Positions 12,639-55,514 of a DNA stretch of 64,000 nucleotides are shown here, piece after piece. The position numbers were made by a program, and so were the translations under genes. Numbering within the stretch: position 1 is the first letter of the stretch; every line of letters begins with the position of its first letter. Source of the stretch: Baekduia alba (GTDB taxonomy: Bacteria; Actinomycetota; Thermoleophilia; Solirubrobacterales; Solirubrobacteraceae); NCBI RefSeq assembly GCF_028416635.1, contig NZ_CP114013.1:558001-622000 (forward strand). Reading direction: 5' to 3'. Below the pieces are notes generated by a model. It was given only the letters and a program-made list of their open reading frames with translations. It made no database searches and had not been told where the DNA came from.

Positions 12639-14909
12639 CTATGCGGTCGCCTGGATCCGCTCGGTCTCGCTCGTCGGCTGGCCGGCGGCCGCGGTCGCGG
12701 CGAGCTGCAGCGTGACGTCCAGGCCCTTGCGACCGGCGAGCGCCTTCTTCAGCTTCGCCGCCTGCGTCTTGGTGATCGTCAGGCGCACGATCTTCGACGT
12801 GCCCGCCGGGATGTTCACCTTGATCGGCGGCAGGTCGATCGACACCGGCTTGACGACCTTCTTCTTCTTGCCCTTGCCCACGGTCTTGGGCGTGCCGCGC
12901 TGGACGATCGTCGCCGTCGCGGTCAGGTCGCACGTCGTGTCGCAGCCGATCCGGACCGGCAGGTTGCGGGCGGTCAGCACGCCGGCCTGGCGCAGGATCT
13001 TGACGCTCAGCTGCGGGCCGAGCGGCTCGGGCAGCGTCGGGAGCTTCAGGACCGGCGGGCCGGCGGGCGCGGCGAGCAGGCCGCAGCCGGCGGGCGCCAC
13101 GTTGGTGGAGAGCTGGAAGGTCGACACGCGGTTGTTCTCGCTGTCGGTCACCGTCAGCTTGTTGTTGCAGTCGACCGCGACGCCCGTCGGGTGGATGAAC
13201 TCGCCGTCGCCGATCCCGCGCGTGCCCATCGACAGCAGGCGCTCGCCGTTGGGGCCGAACTGCTGGACGCGGTTGTTGCCACGGTCGGCGACCCACAGGT
13301 TCCCGCTCGGGTCCAGGGCGATCTGCGCGGGCGCGTTGAGCTTGCCGAGCTTGGAGCCGGTGCCGCCGAAGTCGTCGAGCTCGGTCCCGGCGTTGTCGTA
13401 GACGCGGATGTGGTTCGCCGAGTCCGCGACGTAGAACTTGGAGCCGTCGGGCGTGACCGCGACGCCGCGCGGCGACGCCTCGGTCGGGAACGAGCCGAGG
13501 TAGGCGCCGGCCGTGCTGAAGCGCGCGACGCGGTCGTTGCCGTAGTCGGCGACCGCGATGTTCCCGGCGCCGTCGATCGCGATCGCCTGGGGCGACTGGA
13601 GCTGGCCGGGGCCGGTGCCCTCGGAGCCGATCGTGCGCGGCGACTGCGCGGTGGCGCGGTCGAAGACGACGATCCGGCTGCGGCGGGCGTCCAGGACGTA
13701 GCCGTTGCCGGCGCCGTCGAAGGCGACGCCGACCGGGTCGGGCAGGACGGTCGGGCCCGGGTTGGGCGAGCCCCAGACGGTGGCGACGGAGCCGTCCGGG
13801 TTCAGGAGCTGGACGCGGCCGTTGACCGAGTCGGTCACCGCGCGCAGCCCGGCGGCGTCGGCGGCGACGCCGAGCGGCGCGTCGAACTGGCCGGTCGCGC
13901 GGCCGGAGGTCCCGAACGAGCGCTTGAGCGTGCCGGAGGCGTCGAAGACGTCGACGCGGTCGTTGCCGGTGTTGGCGACGAACAGCTCGCCGGCGTTGTT
14001 GGTGGCCGCGCCGCGCGGATAGGCGAGCTGGCCGGGCGCCGTGCCGTAGGAGCCCCAGCGGGCCTTGTACTGGTACTTGGTCGCCGGCGTGGAGTAGCGG
14101 ACGATCCGCTGGTTCATGTCGTCGGCGACGAAGACGCGGCCCTGCGGGTCGATCGCGACGCCGTAGGGGAAGTTGAGCTGGCCCGGTCCGGCGCCCTGGC
14201 CGAGGCCGATCGACGCGAGCAGGTGGCCGCCGGTGTCGAACGCGGCGACGCGATGGTGCTGGTCGTCGGCGACGAGCATGCGCGTGCCGCGGACGGCGAC
14301 GCCGCGCGGGTTCTGCAGGGTGCCGGGCGGGACGATCTCGGACCCGTTGTTGCCGTCGGCGGCGAAGCGCACCACGCGGTCGTTGCCGGTGTCGACGATG
14401 TACAGCGTCGAGCCGGCCGCCGCGAGGCCGCCGCCGGCCGCCGCGTCGTTGCCGCCGCCGGCGCCGAAGTGGAACTTGCCGAGGTCGGCGCCCGAGCCGC
14501 CCCACGAGCCGATCAGGTCACCGGTGTTGGTGAAGCGGACGATGCGGTTGGAGCTGCCGTCGGCGACGACGACCTGGTTGTCGCCGGTGACGGCGACCGC
14601 GCCGATCGCGCTGAGCTCCCCGGGCCGTGTCCCCGCGCTGCCGATGTCGCGCAGCCACGTGCCGTCGGGCTGGAACTGCTGGATCAGGTGCGAGCCCTGG
14701 TCGGTCACGTACACGTTGCCGTCGGGGCCGACCGCGACGGCCTGCGGGAAGCGCAGGACGCCGCCGCCGCGGGACCCGCTCTGGCCGACCGCGGAGTACG
14801 GGCACTGGGTCGTCGAGGAGGCGCCCGGGCAGTCGGCTTGCGCGCTGGCGGCCATCACGAGAAGGGCGCCGGCCGCGATCAGCGAGGGCAGGAGGCGTCG
14901 TCGGAGCAT
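12639..14909 (-). CDS. Secreted NHL-repeat beta-propeller protein
   Basis: 756 residues. A signal peptide (MLRRRLLPSLIAAGALLVMAASAQA) is followed by at least eleven NHL-like blades. Each has the signature P.gvAvd..GnvyVaD..n.Ri..f (for example FPQAVAVGPDGNVYVTD, YPRGAATNNAGELFVAN, QSPQAIAIDGAGNIAVAD). This is enough for two propellers in tandem. The last ~170 residues are a different Ala/Lys-rich domain with two cysteines (RIGCDTTCDLTATATI), resembling a beta-sandwich. NHL propellers bind proteins, RNA or glycans, and some have lyase activity; nothing here selects one. It is probably an extracellular protein. Its upstream neighbour diverges from it. Confidence 0.85.
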   Translation of the reverse strand: MLRRRLLPSLIAAGALLVMAASAQADCPGASSTTQCPYSAVGQSGSRGGGVLRFPQAVAVGPDGNVYVTDQGSHLIQQFQPDGTWLRDIGSAGTRPGELSAIGAVAVTGDNQVVVADGSSNRIVRFTNTGDLIGSWGGSGADLGKFHFGAGGGNDAAAGGGLAAAGSTLYIVDTGNDRVVRFAADGNNGSEIVPPGTLQNPRGVAVRGTRMLVADDQHHRVAAFDTGGHLLASIGLGQGAGPGQLNFPYGVAIDPQGRVFVADDMNQRIVRYSTPATKYQYKARWGSYGTAPGQLAYPRGAATNNAGELFVANTGNDRVDVFDASGTLKRSFGTSGRATGQFDAPLGVAADAAGLRAVTDSVNGRVQLLNPDGSVATVWGSPNPGPTVLPDPVGVAFDGAGNGYVLDARRSRIVVFDRATAQSPRTIGSEGTGPGQLQSPQAIAIDGAGNIAVADYGNDRVARFSTAGAYLGSFPTEASPRGVAVTPDGSKFYVADSANHIRVYDNAGTELDDFGGTGSKLGKLNAPAQIALDPSGNLWVADRGNNRVQQFGPNGERLLSMGTRGIGDGEFIHPTGVAVDCNNKLTVTDSENNRVSTFQLSTNVAPAGCGLLAAPAGPPVLKLPTLPEPLGPQLSVKILRQAGVLTARNLPVRIGCDTTCDLTATATIVQRGTPKTVGKGKKKKVVKPVSIDLPPIKVNIPAGTSKIVRLTITKTQAAKLKKALAGRKGLDVTLQLAATAAAGQPTSETERIQATA

Positions 14910-14980: not shown

Positions 14981-15673
14981 GTGTCCGGGATCGGCGTCCT
15001 GCGCGAAGGGCCGCTGCATGCGGCGGTGAAGGATCTGCTGGCGCGTCCGGGGGACGCCGCGGAGGTCCGCGTCGAAGGGTTCGTGATCGATCTCGTGCGG
15101 GCGTCCGGCGAGCTGGTGGAGATCCAGACGGGCGGGTTCTCGCCGCTGGGGCACAAGCTCGACGCGCTGCTGGACGGGCACCGGATGCGGATCGTGTTCC
15201 CGGTGCCGGCCGAGCGGCGGATCGTGCGGATCGACGAGCACGGCGAGGTGCTGTCGTCGCGGCGGTCGCCGCTGCGGGGCAATGCGCTCGACGTCTTCGA
15301 TCGCCTGGTGTCGTTCCCGTCGCTGCTCGCGCATCCCAACCTCGTGGTCGAGGTGCTGCTGTGCCGGGAGGATCACGTGCGCGCGCCGGAGGCGGGGCGG
15401 TCGCGGTCCGGCCGGCGGCGTCGCGATCCGGGCGAGCGGCGGCTGGACGAGGTCGTCGGCTCGGTCGAGCTCGCCTCGCCGGCGGATGCGGCGGCGCTGC
15501 TGCCGGAGGGGCTCGGCGCGGTGGAGGCGTTCACGACGCGGGAGCTGGCGACCGCGGTCGGGTGCCGGATGATCCTCGCGCAGCGGATCGCCTACTGCCT
15601 GCGCGCGATGGAGGTCTTCGAGGACGCGGGCAAGCGGGGGCGGGCGCCGCTGCACCGGCTGGTCACGCGCTAG
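14981..15673 (+). CDS. Conserved protein with possible PD-(D/E)xK nuclease-like core
   Basis: 230 residues from GTG 14981 (GTG 14978 is equivalent). The sequence resembles a conserved hypothetical family I recall from Chloroflexi and actinobacteria (possibly DUF8091): HAAVKDLLARPGD, then VEGFVIDLVRASGELVEIQTG, RIVFPVPAERRIVRID and a C-terminal winged-helix-like FTTRELATAVGCRMILAQRIAYCLRAM. An acidic residue on one strand (VIDLV) followed by E-x-Q on the next (LVEIQTG) is the spacing of a PD-(D/E)xK nuclease core; that is inference. An Arg-rich linker (SRSGRRRRDPGERR) joins the halves. Its stop shares the CTAG tetranucleotide with the convergent transglycosylase gene. Confidence 0.65.
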   Translation: MSGIGVLREGPLHAAVKDLLARPGDAAEVRVEGFVIDLVRASGELVEIQTGGFSPLGHKLDALLDGHRMRIVFPVPAERRIVRIDEHGEVLSSRRSPLRGNALDVFDRLVSFPSLLAHPNLVVEVLLCREDHVRAPEAGRSRSGRRRRDPGERRLDEVVGSVELASPADAAALLPEGLGAVEAFTTRELATAVGCRMILAQRIAYCLRAMEVFEDAGKRGRAPLHRLVTR

Positions 15674-17677: not shown

Positions 17678-17998
17678 ATGGACGACCTCCTCAAGCTCGC
17701 CGCCGACGCCGGCCACGAGATCTCGAACGCCGAGGACGCCCTCGACGAGGGCGCACCCGACACCGCCCGCGACGCGCTCGACCGCGCCGCCGACCACCTC
17801 TCGACCCTCCGCACCCGCTGGCCCGACATGTCCGCGCCGGAACGCGCCGTCGTGGGCCCGGCCGCCAAGGCCATCCGCGAACGCCTCGACACCGCCGCCT
17901 CCCGCATCCCGAAACGCCAGACTCTCTCCGTGACCCCGGCCGAGGTCGACCCGGAGCAGGAGTCCGAGCCCGACGCGCCCCCACCCACCGCAGCCTGA
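17678..17998 (+). CDS. Small acidic helical protein, 106 aa
   Basis: No family recognised. ATG 17678 is used, preceded by TAGCAT ten bases away and no Shine-Dalgarno. The protein is predicted helical (LLKLAADAGHEISNAEDALDEG; TARDALDRAADHLSTLRTRW; AKAIRERLDTAASRI), with an acidic Pro-rich tail (EQESEPDAPPP). It has no membrane segment. It diverges from the Ada/MGMT gene with a 60-base gap between starts and may share its control region. Confidence 0.65.
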   Translation: MDDLLKLAADAGHEISNAEDALDEGAPDTARDALDRAADHLSTLRTRWPDMSAPERAVVGPAAKAIRERLDTAASRIPKRQTLSVTPAEVDPEQESEPDAPPPTAA

Positions 17999-52181: not shown

Positions 52182-52862
52182 GTGCTCCTGCTCTTCGACA
52201 TCGACGGAACGCTGCTGCTCAAGGCGTCGCGCGACCACGTGCTCGCGATCCACGCGGCGCTGCGGCGGGTGCACCGGCTGCAGGAGATCCCGGCGGGCAA
52301 GCTCGACGCGGCGGGGCGGACCGACCCCGCCATCGCGCGCACGTTGCTCACGCTCGTCGACGTATCGGCCGAGGAGATCGACGCGCGGGCCCACGACGTG
52401 ATGCTGGCGGCGTGCGCCGAGTACCAGCAGCGCTGTCCGGCCGACCTGCGCGAGCACGTCGCGCCCGGTGTGCCCGAGGTGCTCGACAAGCTCGCCGCGC
52501 GCGACGACGTCAAGTTGTCGGTGTTGACCGGGAACCTCGAGTGCGTCGCGCGGCTGAAGCTGGAGCGGGCCGGGCTGAGCGACTACTTCGAGTACGGCCA
52601 GGGCGCGTTCGGCAGCGACTCCGAGGACCGTTCCGAGCTGCCCGAGATCGCGCGCCGCCGGGCCGGCGACCACCCGCGCGAGCAGACCGTCGTCATCGGC
52701 GACACCCCACGCGACATCGCCTGCGCCCGCGCCGACGGCGTGCATTGCATCGCGATCGCGACCGGCCCCTACCGCGCGGCCGACCTCCACGGCGCCGACG
52801 TCGTCATCGACATGGCGCGCGAGATCCCGGCCGCGCTGGCGCGGATCCCGGGGCTGGTCTAG
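52182..52862 (+). CDS. HAD family hydrolase (phosphoglycolate phosphatase-like)
   Basis: 226 residues, start GTG 52182. HAD motif I is LLFDIDGTLL, motif II is LSVLTGN, motif III/IV is VVIGDTPRDIACARADG. The helical cap (SRDHVLAIHAALRRVH ... EYQQRCPADLREHV) is of the C1 type. The substrate could be phosphoglycolate or another small phosphate ester. Its stop shares CTAG with the convergent DsbA-like gene. Confidence 0.9.
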   Translation: MLLLFDIDGTLLLKASRDHVLAIHAALRRVHRLQEIPAGKLDAAGRTDPAIARTLLTLVDVSAEEIDARAHDVMLAACAEYQQRCPADLREHVAPGVPEVLDKLAARDDVKLSVLTGNLECVARLKLERAGLSDYFEYGQGAFGSDSEDRSELPEIARRRAGDHPREQTVVIGDTPRDIACARADGVHCIAIATGPYRAADLHGADVVIDMAREIPAALARIPGLV

Positions 52863-53707
52863 CTCGGCAGCGTCCAGAACCCGTCGAAGCCGACCGGGTG
52901 CTCGACCGCGACGCGGCTGAGCTGCTCGCGGGCCTCCTCGAAGGGGATGTCGCAGACCACCGCGACCTCGACCGAGGCCAGCGGCGTGCCCGTCCAGGCC
53001 AGGACCTCCTCGACCGACGCCGGGTTGGGGCGGCGGTCGAGCTTGGGCAGGAGGTTGGCGGTGACCACGTCGTAGACCGCGAAGGGCTGGAAGCCCGGGA
53101 CGGCGATCCTGACGCCGTCGGCGCGGCGCTCGATCTCGTAGGACGGGCAGGTGTAGCGGCGGCCGCCCGACCAGTTGGCGAGCTTGTCGTCGAGGACGCG
53201 CGCGGCCGGCGCGGGCTCGCGCGCGGCGGCCATGTCCTGGTCCAGCGCGGCCTGCACGTCGTCGCCCTCCATCCACGCGCGCAGCTGCGCCGGGTCGATG
53301 CCGGCGTCGGTCGCGGCGCCGTCCATGGTCCCCGGCGCGTCGAGGATCTCGCCGCTGAAGCTCCGGACCCGCAACCGGCGCAGCAGCGCGCGCATCCGGT
53401 CGGGCGCGTGCAGCTTGGCGGCGACGACCGCGCGGCAGGCCGGGAGCGACGCGGCGAGCCGCTCGCGCACGCGCGTGTCGATCGGCATCTTGTGCTCGCG
53501 GCTGATCCGCTTGTAGTGGCCGGACAGGACCTCGGGCGTGAAGCCGTGCTTCTCCATCGCCTTGGTGTCGTCGGACAGGCCGACCATCCGGACGTCCCAC
53601 TCCAGCTGGTCGCCGTAGATCCAGCTCAGCCGGTGCCGGAACGGCTCGGCGCTGTAGGCCCAGGGGCAGGCGGGATCGGTGTACTCGGTGATGACGACGT
53701 CGGCCAT
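52859..53707 (-). CDS. DsbA/FrnE-family oxidoreductase-like protein
   Basis: 282 residues from ATG 53707. It is a thioredoxin-fold protein of the DsbA/FrnE type: VITEYTDPACPWAYSAEPFRHRLSWIYGD at the start, with a single active-site Cys (CPWA, second Cys replaced by Ala), and a helical insert that includes LLRRLRVRSFSGEILD. A second conserved Cys is in YTCPSYEI. Loss of the resolving Cys argues against simple disulfide exchange; an isomerase- or glutathione-type role is possible. No signal peptide, so it is cytoplasmic. Its start faces a perfect palindrome shared with the tiny gene at 53744. Confidence 0.85.
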   Translation of the reverse strand: MADVVITEYTDPACPWAYSAEPFRHRLSWIYGDQLEWDVRMVGLSDDTKAMEKHGFTPEVLSGHYKRISREHKMPIDTRVRERLAASLPACRAVVAAKLHAPDRMRALLRRLRVRSFSGEILDAPGTMDGAATDAGIDPAQLRAWMEGDDVQAALDQDMAAAREPAPAARVLDDKLANWSGGRRYTCPSYEIERRADGVRIAVPGFQPFAVYDVVTANLLPKLDRRPNPASVEEVLAWTGTPLASVEVAVVCDIPFEEAREQLSRVAVEHPVGFDGFWTLPS

Positions 53708-53713
53708 GCCTTC

Positions 53714-53737
53714 GGTGCTACCCGGCCGGGTAGCACC
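53714..53737. promoter_or_regulatory. Perfect 24-bp palindrome forming a symmetric divergent promoter/operator
   Basis: Half-site GGTGCTACCCGG followed by its exact reverse complement. It leaves exactly 6 bases to ATG 53707 on the minus strand and 6 bases to ATG 53744 on the plus strand. On each strand TAGCAC then lies 7 bases before the start codon, so each half can serve as a leaderless -10-like box. There is no room for a Shine-Dalgarno. A dimeric repressor bound here would shut both genes. Confidence 0.8.
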
Positions 53738-53743
53738 AACCTC

Positions 53744-53836
53744 ATGGCCACCAACAGCAAGCAGCAGGACCTCATCGACCGGTTGCACGCGGACGGGATC
53801 CGCAAGCGTGTCGCGACGAAGAAGGCGAAGGCCTAG
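53744..53836 (+). CDS. Tiny basic protein, 30 aa
   Basis: The open frame ATG 53744 to TAG 53836 encodes MATNSKQQDLIDRLHADGIR plus RKRVATKKAKA-like basic residues. The part KQQDLIDRLHADGIRKRVA resembles the opening of longer small actinobacterial proteins I recall (SKQQELIDRL...GLRKKVA), so it may be a short form or a truncation. Its start abuts a perfect palindrome and its stop lies in the centre of another. Translation is unproven, but the symmetric promoter and the terminator support a real gene. Confidence 0.6.
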   Translation: MATNSKQQDLIDRLHADGIRKRVATKKAKA

Positions 53837-53845
53837 GCCTTCGCC
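53824..53845. terminator. Perfect 22-bp palindrome at a convergent gene end
   Basis: Half-site GGCGAAGGCCT followed by its exact reverse complement. It contains the TAG stop of the tiny gene and ends 10 bases before the stop of ettA. It can fold on either transcript and may serve as a bidirectional 3' end, though no T-run follows. Confidence 0.7.
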
Positions 53846-53855
53846 TCCGCGCCGA

Positions 53856-55514
53856 TCAGGTGCGGGTGAGCTTCTTGTAGGAGATGCGGTGCGGCCGGTC
53901 GGCTTCGTCGCCGAGCGTGTCGCGCCGCCACTGCTCGTAGGCCTCGAAGTTGCCTTCGAACCAGGTGACCTTCGAGTCGCCCTCGAACGCGAGGACGTGC
54001 GTGGCGATGCGGTCCAGGAACCAGCGATCGTGGGAGATGACCACCGCGCAGCCCGCGTAGTTCAGCAGCGCCTCTTCGAGCGCGCGCAGCGTGTCGGTGT
54101 CCAGGTCGTTGGTCGGCTCGTCCAGCAGCAGCAGGTTGCCGCCGGTGCGCAGCAGCTTCGCGAGGTGGACGCGGTTGCGCTCACCGCCCGACAGCATCTT
54201 GATCTTCTTCTGCTGCTCGGCCTTCTTGAAGTTGAAGCCCGAGGTGTAGGCGCGCGAGTTCATGACGCGCTCGCCGACCTTGATCTGCTCCAGGCCGCCG
54301 GAGATCTCCTCCCAGACGCTCTTCTCGCCGTCGAGCGCGTCGCGGCTCTGGTCGACGTAGGAGATCTGGACCGTGTCGCCGATGCGCAGCTTGCCGGCGT
54401 CCGGCTCCTCGCGGCCGGCGATCATCTTGAACAGCGTGGTCTTGCCCGCGCCGTTGGGGCCGATGACGCCGACGATGCCGCCGGGCGGCAGGTCGAAGGT
54501 CAGGTCGTCGATCAGCAGCTTGTCGCCGAAGCCCTTGCGCAGCCCGTCGGCCTGGACGACCGTGTTGCCGAGGTGCGTCGCGATCGGGATGTGGATCTGG
54601 ACGTCGTCCAGCTTGATGTTCTTCTCCTCGGCGACGAGGGCCTCGTAGTTCGAGATGCGCGCCTTCTGCTTGGTCTGGCGGCCCTTGGGGTTCTTGCGGA
54701 CCCACTCGAGCTCGGCCTTGATGATGCGCTCCTTGGCGAGGTCGCGGCGCTCCTGCATCTCCAGGCGCTTCTCCTTCTGGTCCAGCCAGGCGGAGTAGTT
54801 GCCCTCGTAGGGGATGCCGCGGCCACGGTCGAGCTCGAGGATCCAGCCCGCGACGTTGTCGAGGAAGTAGCGATCGTGGGTCACGGCCACGACGGCGCCC
54901 TTGTAGTCGGCGAGGTAGCGCTCCAGCCAGCCGACGGACTCGGCGTCCAGGTGGTTGGTCGGCTCGTCGAGGAGCAGCAGGTCGGGGGCGCTGAGCAGCA
55001 GGCGGCAGAGCGCGATGCGGCGGCGCTCGCCGCCGGAGAGCGTGGTGACGTCGGCGTCCGGCGGCGGGCAGCGCAGCGCGTCCATCGCGTAGTCGATCGT
55101 CGTGTCGAGGTTCCAGCCGTCGACCGCGTCGATCTTGGCCTGGACCGCGGCGAACTCGTCGGCGGTCTCGTCGGAGTAGTTCATCGACAGCTCGTTGAAG
55201 CGGTCCATGAGCGCCTTGGTCTCGGCGACGCCGTCGAGGACGTTCTCGCGCGCGTTCTTGGTCTCGTCGAGCTTGGGCTCCTGCTCGAGCAGGCCGACGG
55301 TCGCGCCGGGGGCGAGCATCGCCTCCCCGGAGCGGAAGTCGGTGTCGATGCCGGCCATGATCTTCAACAGCGTGGACTTGCCCGCGCCGTTGTAGCCGAG
55401 CACGCCGATCTTCGCGCCGGAGTAGAACGCGAGCGTGACCTCGTTGAGGATCGGCTTCTCCGGCCCGTAGGCCTTCGTGAGCCGCTGCATCTGGAAGACG
55501 TACTGAGGAGCCAT
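53856..55514 (-). CDS. ettA: Energy-dependent translational throttle protein EttA (ABC-F)
   Basis: 552 residues. Two ABC cassettes are present: Walker A GYNGAGKST and GPNGAGKTT, signatures LSGGERRRIALCRLL and LSGGERNRVHLAKLL, Walker B LLLLDEPTNHLDAESV and LLLLDEPTNDLDTDTL. The arm and P-site interaction regions between them (RLEMQERRDLAKERIIKAELEWVRKNPKGRQTK) and the C-terminal RISYKKLTR are typical of EttA. It binds the ribosomal E site and adjusts translation to the energy state. It follows murB on the same strand with 94 bases between. Confidence 0.97.
   Translation of the reverse strand: MAPQYVFQMQRLTKAYGPEKPILNEVTLAFYSGAKIGVLGYNGAGKSTLLKIMAGIDTDFRSGEAMLAPGATVGLLEQEPKLDETKNARENVLDGVAETKALMDRFNELSMNYSDETADEFAAVQAKIDAVDGWNLDTTIDYAMDALRCPPPDADVTTLSGGERRRIALCRLLLSAPDLLLLDEPTNHLDAESVGWLERYLADYKGAVVAVTHDRYFLDNVAGWILELDRGRGIPYEGNYSAWLDQKEKRLEMQERRDLAKERIIKAELEWVRKNPKGRQTKQKARISNYEALVAEEKNIKLDDVQIHIPIATHLGNTVVQADGLRKGFGDKLLIDDLTFDLPPGGIVGVIGPNGAGKTTLFKMIAGREEPDAGKLRIGDTVQISYVDQSRDALDGEKSVWEEISGGLEQIKVGERVMNSRAYTSGFNFKKAEQQKKIKMLSGGERNRVHLAKLLRTGGNLLLLDEPTNDLDTDTLRALEEALLNYAGCAVVISHDRWFLDRIATHVLAFEGDSKVTWFEGNFEAYEQWRRDTLGDEADRPHRISYKKLTRT

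What the first reader, a model, noticed from the sequence alone, without database searches (positions are those of the whole stretch)
53707..53845. Thirty-codon gene bracketed by two perfect palindromes with an exactly symmetric divergent promoter
A 24-bp perfect palindrome lies exactly 6 bases from the start codons of both divergent genes, each half giving TAGCAC 7 bases before ATG. A second perfect palindrome of 22 bp contains the tiny gene's stop codon. The unit of about 130 bases looks like a compact regulated microprotein gene, or possibly a small mobile palindrome-ended element.
Basis: partly seen in the sequence, partly recalled or inferred. Interest (0 to 1): 0.62.

Follow-up and report, generated by a model that had tools for sequence, protein, structure and literature searches.

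The report
Shortened gene between promoter and terminator
The tiny gene is what is left of a normal hundred-residue, DNA-binding-like protein gene after an internal deletion, and the two palindromes next to it look like an ordinary back-to-back promoter pair and an ordinary transcription terminator.

Summary
The sequence features are real: a perfect 24-bp palindrome (53714-53737) sits exactly 6 bp from both divergent ATGs, and a second perfect palindrome (24 bp, not 22: 53823-53846) holds the ORF's stop. Both exceed chance.

The interpretation changes. The 30-codon ORF is not a self-contained microprotein gene. Two congeners (one a Conexibacter MAG) have, at the same place between dsbA and an ABC-F gene, a 103-106-residue gene with nearly the same first 25 residues, a helical middle and a Lys/Ala-rich, histone-H1-like tail. 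Full-length relatives occur elsewhere in the class. This genome's only copy has lost about 73 codons in frame, probably between CGCGAC repeats. Two other congeners have no gene there.

Palindrome 1 is absent from both congeners that keep the gene. It fits two back-to-back leaderless promoters: this genome has a strong TANNNT signal peaking 7 nt before starts. The match is imperfect: TAGCAC lacks the final T and TANNNC is not enriched. Palindrome 2 fits a bidirectional terminator: both congeners have a different hairpin in the same convergent gap. Peptide and both 24-mers each occur once in the genome, so it is neither mobile element nor repeat family. Low interest; the unnamed full-length family is the more useful lead.

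The parts
53714..53737 (.). perfect 24-bp palindrome, read as two back-to-back -10 elements (TAGCAC on + at 53730-53735, on - at 53721-53716) of divergent leaderless promoters
   Evidence: promoter role inferred
53744..53836 (+). 30-codon ORF: first 25 codons of an H1-like small-protein gene joined to 5 codons of basic tail after an in-frame internal deletion of about 73 codons
53823..53846 (.). perfect 24-bp palindrome over the stop codon, reaching into the convergent gap to the ABC-F gene; likely bidirectional terminator hairpin
   Evidence: terminator role inferred
52859..53707 (-). DsbA-like thioredoxin-fold protein gene (PF01323), divergent neighbour
53856..55514 (-). double-ABC ATPase (ABC-F type; the name ettA used here is recalled, from no call), convergent neighbour, upstream of dsbA on the same strand

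Best explanation
The 30-codon ORF is the remnant of a ~105-codon gene for a small basic protein (conserved N-terminal motif DLxxRLxxxGxRKRVA, helical middle, Lys/Ala-rich histone-H1-like tail) that lies between dsbA and ettA in this genus. An in-frame internal deletion, probably slippage or recombination between direct CGCGAC repeats, joined residue 25 to the last few tail codons. The gene keeps its old flanks. Upstream is a 36-bp spacer in which two leaderless promoters stand back to back, so that each -10 lies 7 nt before its ATG and the spacer reads as a palindrome. Downstream is a hairpin in the convergent gap that can end transcription from both sides. RNA polymerase could hold only one of the two overlapping promoters at a time. 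Shown: homology, deletion, synteny, single copy, palindromes, genome-wide leaderless signal. Inferred: promoter and terminator activity, mutual exclusion, repeat-mediated deletion, and that the remnant has little or no function.
For: G064 and G065 encode 103- and 106-residue proteins whose first 26 residues are 88% and 85% identical to the ORF, with dsbA divergent and ettA convergent in both (in G064 only the last 21 ettA residues lie on the contig). Distant full-length relatives (G076, G002, G007, G126, G073, G215) show that the long form is ancestral. The own genome has no long copy. The ORF's last codons GCGAAGGCCTAG equal the end of the G064 gene, and CGCGAC recurs in the same frame at nt 69 in all three genes and again in the tail of G064 (nt 222) and G065 (nt 288). 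TANNNT peaks 7 nt before candidate starts: 92 of 6028, against 2-7 at 0-5 nt and 3-19 at 14-39 nt. dsbA of 7 of 17 relatives (G062, G063, G064, G065, G110, G189, G196) has TANNNT 6-8 nt before a candidate start. A second divergent pair in this genome, around G000:C1:2252047-2252082, has CATCCTACCC-ggt-GGGTAGGATG with TAGGAT 6-7 nt before both starts and, like the window, no regulator found beside it, while 3 of the 4 other such loci have a TetR or GntR gene. Convergent gaps carry arms of 10 or more in 10 of 170 cases, against 4 of 1334 mid-gene 80-mers. G064 and G065 have different hairpins (arms 10 and 9) in the same gap.
Against: TAGCAC lacks the last T of TANNNT, and TANNNC shows no enrichment at 7 nt (14 of 6028, against 17 at 4 and 15 at 10), so the promoter call is weak for both genes; the window locus counts as neither -10 present under the strict motif. 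In 10 of 17 relatives no TANNNT lies 6-8 nt before a dsbA candidate start (G077 has it at 10). Of the codons where G064 and G065 agree and this genome differs, 4 are synonymous and 1 is not: this hints that the N-terminus was still constrained, or that the deletion is recent. Ten of the 22 columns invariant in five full-length relatives lie in the retained part. The trees do not fix the order of gain, truncation and loss. An assembly error cannot be excluded without reads.
Confidence: 0.8

Rival explanations
1. The deleted gene is still a working microprotein: the conserved N-terminal helices with a short basic end are made and bind their partner or DNA, so the deletion created a functional mini-protein.
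For: Reading frame kept; 10 of 22 invariant columns retained; 4 synonymous against 1 nonsynonymous G000-specific codon change among 25 codons; the retained part covers the first helix and most of the second of four in a low-confidence model of the G064 protein; promoter-like and terminator-like elements in place.
Against: Among the genomes searched only this one showed the short form; two congeners have no gene at the locus; the substitution count is tiny and may predate the deletion; the two longest helices of the model (34-58, 68-102), including the basic tail, are lost.
Confidence: 0.15
2. Palindrome 1 is the operator of a dimeric regulator that represses both divergent genes, rather than a symmetric pair of -10 elements.
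For: A perfect 24-bp dyad in a 36-bp divergent spacer. Of the 5 other divergent loci with arms of 10 or more, 3 have a regulator gene on one side (TetR, GntR, GntR), so such repeats often are operators here. -10 match imperfect.
Against: Single site genome-wide with up to 3 mismatches; best other site in 2.46 Mb differs at 6 positions and lies in a gene; neither neighbour here is a regulator; not conserved in G064 or G065.
Confidence: 0.22
3. A small palindrome-ended mobile element (MITE- or REP-like).
For: Two palindromes about 109 bp apart bracket a short ORF.
Against: One copy of each 24-mer and of the peptide in the genome; the two palindromes are unrelated; the ORF is homologous to a longer gene at the same place in congeners.
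Confidence: 0.01

Closest known systems
Leaderless TANNNT promoters of Actinobacteria (Cortes et al. 2013, PMC3898074; Zheng et al. 2011, PMC3160421; passages read)
   Same: TA-starting hexamer about 7 nt before the ATG and no Shine-Dalgarno sequence; the same signal is strong in this genome.
   Different: Last base is C, not T, at both starts; two such elements face away from each other within a perfect palindrome.
GC-rich hairpin (intrinsic-type) bidirectional terminator between convergent genes
   Same: Hairpin over the stop codon and the roughly 20-bp gap to the stop of the ABC gene.
   Different: Perfect palindrome reaching into the last codons; no U run after the stem on the + strand, and only TTCTTC on the - strand.
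Histone-H1-like bacterial proteins with Lys/Ala-rich tails (for example AlgP; PMC9239181, seen in a search listing only)
   Same: The full-length relatives have a Lys/Ala/Arg-rich tail after a helical region.
   Different: Full-length relatives match no Pfam or NCBIfam model above cut-off; no sequence comparison with AlgP was made; the window copy has lost almost all of the tail.

Membership tests
Unnamed Thermoleophilia H1-like small-protein family (full-length form) | N-terminal motif DLxxRLxxxGxRKRVA | tested here: met
   E 1.8e-10 and 5.2e-9 to G064 and G065; E 3.7e-9 to the family profile over positions 1-31
Unnamed Thermoleophilia H1-like small-protein family (full-length form) | helical middle and Lys/Ala-rich tail | tested here: not met
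   Absent from the window ORF; 73 codons missing against G064. So it is a truncated derivative, not a full member.
Leaderless TANNNT promoter | hexamer ending about 7 nt before the start codon, no Shine-Dalgarno sequence | tested here: met
   absence of Shine-Dalgarno sequence read by eye
Leaderless TANNNT promoter | T-A-N-N-N-T | tested here: not met
   TAGCAC on both sides; TANNNC not enriched at 7 nt
Leaderless TANNNT promoter | transcription start at the ATG | not testable with these tools
   needs 5'-end mapping
Bidirectional terminator | strong hairpin in a convergent gap | tested here: met
   z -2.6 (+) and -3.7 (-) against shuffles; hairpins also in G064 and G065
Bidirectional terminator | ends transcription | not testable with these tools
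   needs 3'-end mapping
MITE/REP-like mobile element | several copies in the genome | tested here: not met

The most novel reading that the evidence does not exclude
The internal deletion made a functional 30-residue microprotein out of the conserved N-terminal module of a nucleoid-protein-like family, expressed from a perfectly symmetric pair of leaderless promoters that also serves as a switch between it and the dsbA gene.
Probability: 0.07. Interest if true: 0.5.

Novelty: new member of a known kind. Interest (0 to 1): 0.2.

Why it matters
As a warning: a neat short ORF framed by palindromes can be a deletion remnant, and comparison with congeners shows this at once. The side result may matter more: an unnamed, conserved family of small H1-like proteins in this class, with no Pfam or NCBIfam model found, and a number of very short divergent spacers with leaderless -10 signals on both sides in this genome (10 of 92 loci).

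Tried and rejected
Rfam scan of 53400-54200 gave three sub-threshold matches (best 21.7 bits against a gathering score of 70). A regulon around the half-site GGTAGCAC was sought: 16 sites in 2.46 Mb (two are the window's own), 6 outside predicted genes; besides the window's, two have a candidate start 6 or 8 nt after TAGCAC, two have one 19 or 34 nt after it, the rest none within reach. This is too few for a regulon, and at most faint support for TAGCAC as a -10. PDB sequence search with the five-row profile: 5 sequences at E up to 1, best E 0.009 to an unrelated chain over 24 positions. AlphaFold model of the G064 protein: all helix, mean pLDDT 72.9, pTM 0.31, too weak for a fold search, so none was run. 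Trees: of 15 dsbA proteins only G064+G065 firmly grouped, and of 7 ABC-F C-terminal parts the four of this genus near the window's are not resolved. Literature: searches for leaderless with Conexibacter, sequence-symmetric divergent promoters, TANNNT with leaderless, H1-like tails, palindromic/divergent/leaderless, and Conexibacter with nucleoid-associated gave no paper on this locus or family in the titles and abstract starts listed. Passages were read in PMC3898074 and PMC3160421 only.

Gene calls in the own genome are my own GC-by-codon-position predictions (80 codons or more) with all ATG/GTG in the first 180 nt as candidate starts, so start-based counts include false starts. For the genome-wide promoter and repeat work 2.464 Mb of 5.863 Mb were used (and the window). 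In one search, 13 of 29 genomes were left out of my family count because they match only the Lys/Ala-rich tail or lie inside long frames. In one search, 9 of 10 neighbours of the five other repeat loci were scanned; the tenth runs across a locus border and was not.

Full report
OBSERVATION. The palindromes and their geometry are as described, except that the second one is 24 bp (53823-53846), not 22. Palindrome 1 lies at 53714-53737, with 6 bases to the ATG of the dsbA-like gene (- strand, start 53707) and 6 to the ATG of the ORF (+ strand, 53744-53836). Perfect palindromes with arms of 12 or more number 6 in 864 kb of this genome, against 1.2 under a first-order Markov model. Two of the six within about 109 bp are therefore not expected by chance.

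COPIES. In the own genome (5.86 Mb, one contig) the peptide has one match. Each of the two 24-mers has one site even with 3 mismatches. In 2.46 Mb the next best site for the first 24-mer differs at 6 positions and lies within a gene. This speaks against a repeat family or mobile element.

WHAT THE ORF IS. A search of 232 genomes of the order with the 30 residues gave 53 with matches at E up to 1, the own genome included. Two others are strong, both in the same genus (G064, 88% over residues 1-26, E 1.8e-10; G065, 85%, E 5.2e-9); G076 follows at 3.4e-4 and the rest are weak. Reading on in the first two, the frame does not stop at codon 30: the proteins have 103 and 106 residues, with a middle predicted helical and a tail rich in Lys, Ala, Arg and Thr. 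G064 is, by an identical protein on a contig of the same length, a Conexibacter MAG (RYN_248). The same architecture occurs in other genera and families. With a five-row profile in 399 genomes of the class, 29 have a match at E up to 0.001. By my reading of the rows, 14 of these match from profile position 6 or earlier to 86 or later (G002, G007, G045, G065, G076, G117, G126, G127, G142, G204, G215, G220, G292, G321), G109 matches 1-62 near its contig end, G000 matches 1-31 only, and the other 13 match the tail alone or inside long frames. Four of the 14 (G002, G045, G142, G204) show one stop codon within the matched stretch; for G002 it is the one that ends the protein, the others were not checked. 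The long form is thus ancestral. The own genome holds no long copy; its only other match is a Lys/Ala-rich stretch aligned to the tail.

THE DELETION. Against G064 the ORF is 73 codons shorter, against G065 76. The first 74 nt match the start and the remainder the end of the G064 gene at 80 of 93 positions (76 of 93 for G065), and the last 12 nt including the stop equal those of G064. CGCGAC occurs in the same frame at nt 69 of all three genes and again in the tail at nt 222 (G064) or 288 (G065); G065 has one more at nt 150. Codon 25 of the window (ACG instead of ACC) is the one expected if the tail copy was joined, though a lone silent change would give the same. Repeat-mediated loss is therefore likely, but inferred. 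Where G064 and G065 agree and G000 differs within codons 1-25, four codons differ silently and one changes the residue. With so few sites this cannot tell a recent deletion from continued selection.

LOCUS HISTORY. In G000, G060, G063, G064 and G065 dsbA and the ABC-F gene lie on one strand close together. In G060 only 7 bases separate the ABC stop from the dsbA start, and in G063 43 bases, with no gene between (counted from the printed sequence). In G064 and G065 the long gene lies between them on the other strand, and in G000 the short one. In G062 the two are about 1 kb apart, and in G061 only a distant dsbA relative was found. G060, G061, G062 and G063 have no match to the long protein anywhere at E up to 0.01, but G061 and G063 are incomplete (81% and 68%). 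The trees leave the order of events open.

PALINDROME 1. Candidate starts in 2.46 Mb show TANNNT ending 6-10 nt upstream, peak at 7 (92 of 6028; 2-7 at distances 0-5, 3-19 at 14-39), about half of them TAGNNT. This is the leaderless-gene signal known from actinobacteria (passages in PMC3898074 and PMC3160421). Before dsbA it is found 6-8 nt from a candidate start in 7 of 17 relatives. TAGCAC at exactly 7 nt on both sides of the palindrome has the position and the first bases but not the last T, and TANNNC is not enriched there. Short divergent spacers with TANNNT on both sides occur at 10 of 92 loci with candidate starts 20-60 bp apart. Six of the 92 have inverted repeats with arms of 10 or more (0.065 in shuffles). 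Of the five besides the window, three have a TetR or GntR gene on one side; one has a transporter gene, its other side not scanned; the fifth has a HIT-domain gene and a gene without Pfam match. That fifth, around G000:C1:2252047-2252082, is a near-palindrome (10-bp arms, 3-bp centre) with the same CTACCC...GGGTAG core and TAGGAT 6-7 nt before both starts. So back-to-back -10 elements can by themselves yield such symmetry, and the window resembles this case more than the regulator-linked ones. The 24-bp palindrome is not conserved: the spacer of G065 is 35 bp with a longest perfect palindrome of 8 bp, and that of G064 is about 82 bp, longest also 8. If read through from the ABC-F gene, palindrome 1 would also form a strong RNA hairpin (z -5.9 on +, -7.3 on -); a role as such is not excluded. 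An operator remains possible (rival 2).

PALINDROME 2. It spans the last codons of the ORF and the start of the roughly 20-bp gap to the ABC gene's stop. As RNA it folds better than shuffles on both strands (z -2.6 on +, where 2 of 200 shuffles do as well; -3.7 on -, none), and on the - strand TTCTTC follows the stem. Inverted repeats with arms of 10 or more are present in 10 of 170 convergent gaps, against 4 of 1334 mid-gene 80-mers. G064 and G065 each have another hairpin in the same gap (arms 10 and 9). A terminator whose sequence turns over fits best.

VERDICT. Real and non-random sequence features, an ordinary origin. The 'microprotein' is a deletion derivative, and the promoter and terminator are of known kinds, the promoter with an off-consensus hexamer. 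The unnamed full-length family deserves separate study.

Noticed in passing
L002:1501-1812, L003:1258-1578 (-), L004, L005, L015, L034, L035, L038: Conserved ~100-residue family (DLxxRLxxxGxRKRVA plus Lys/Ala-rich tail); four members scanned match no Pfam or NCBIfam model above cut-off (members in 42, 43). A candidate unnamed nucleoid protein family.
   Followed up: partly
L053 (G117), 161-residue ORF on the - strand: The same N-terminal domain appears followed by a different C-terminal part (..KAKILESLKAGPKTASEIAKETGIGTGTVGSTLSKM..) that looks like a winged-helix or HTH domain by eye.
   Followed up: no
G000:C1 around 2252047-2252082: A second near-palindromic 34-bp divergent spacer (10-bp arms, 3-bp centre) with TANNNT on both sides, between a HIT-domain gene and an unassigned gene.
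   Followed up: partly
L126 near 15336-15389, L214 near 12783-12842, L143 near 17723-17778: Divergent spacers with inverted repeats (arms 12-14) beside a TetR or GntR regulator gene: candidate operators.
   Followed up: partly
L041 (G007), 546-1271: A DsbA-like gene (31% identical) lies upstream of the full-length H1-like gene also in another family of the order; may be coincidence.
   Followed up: no
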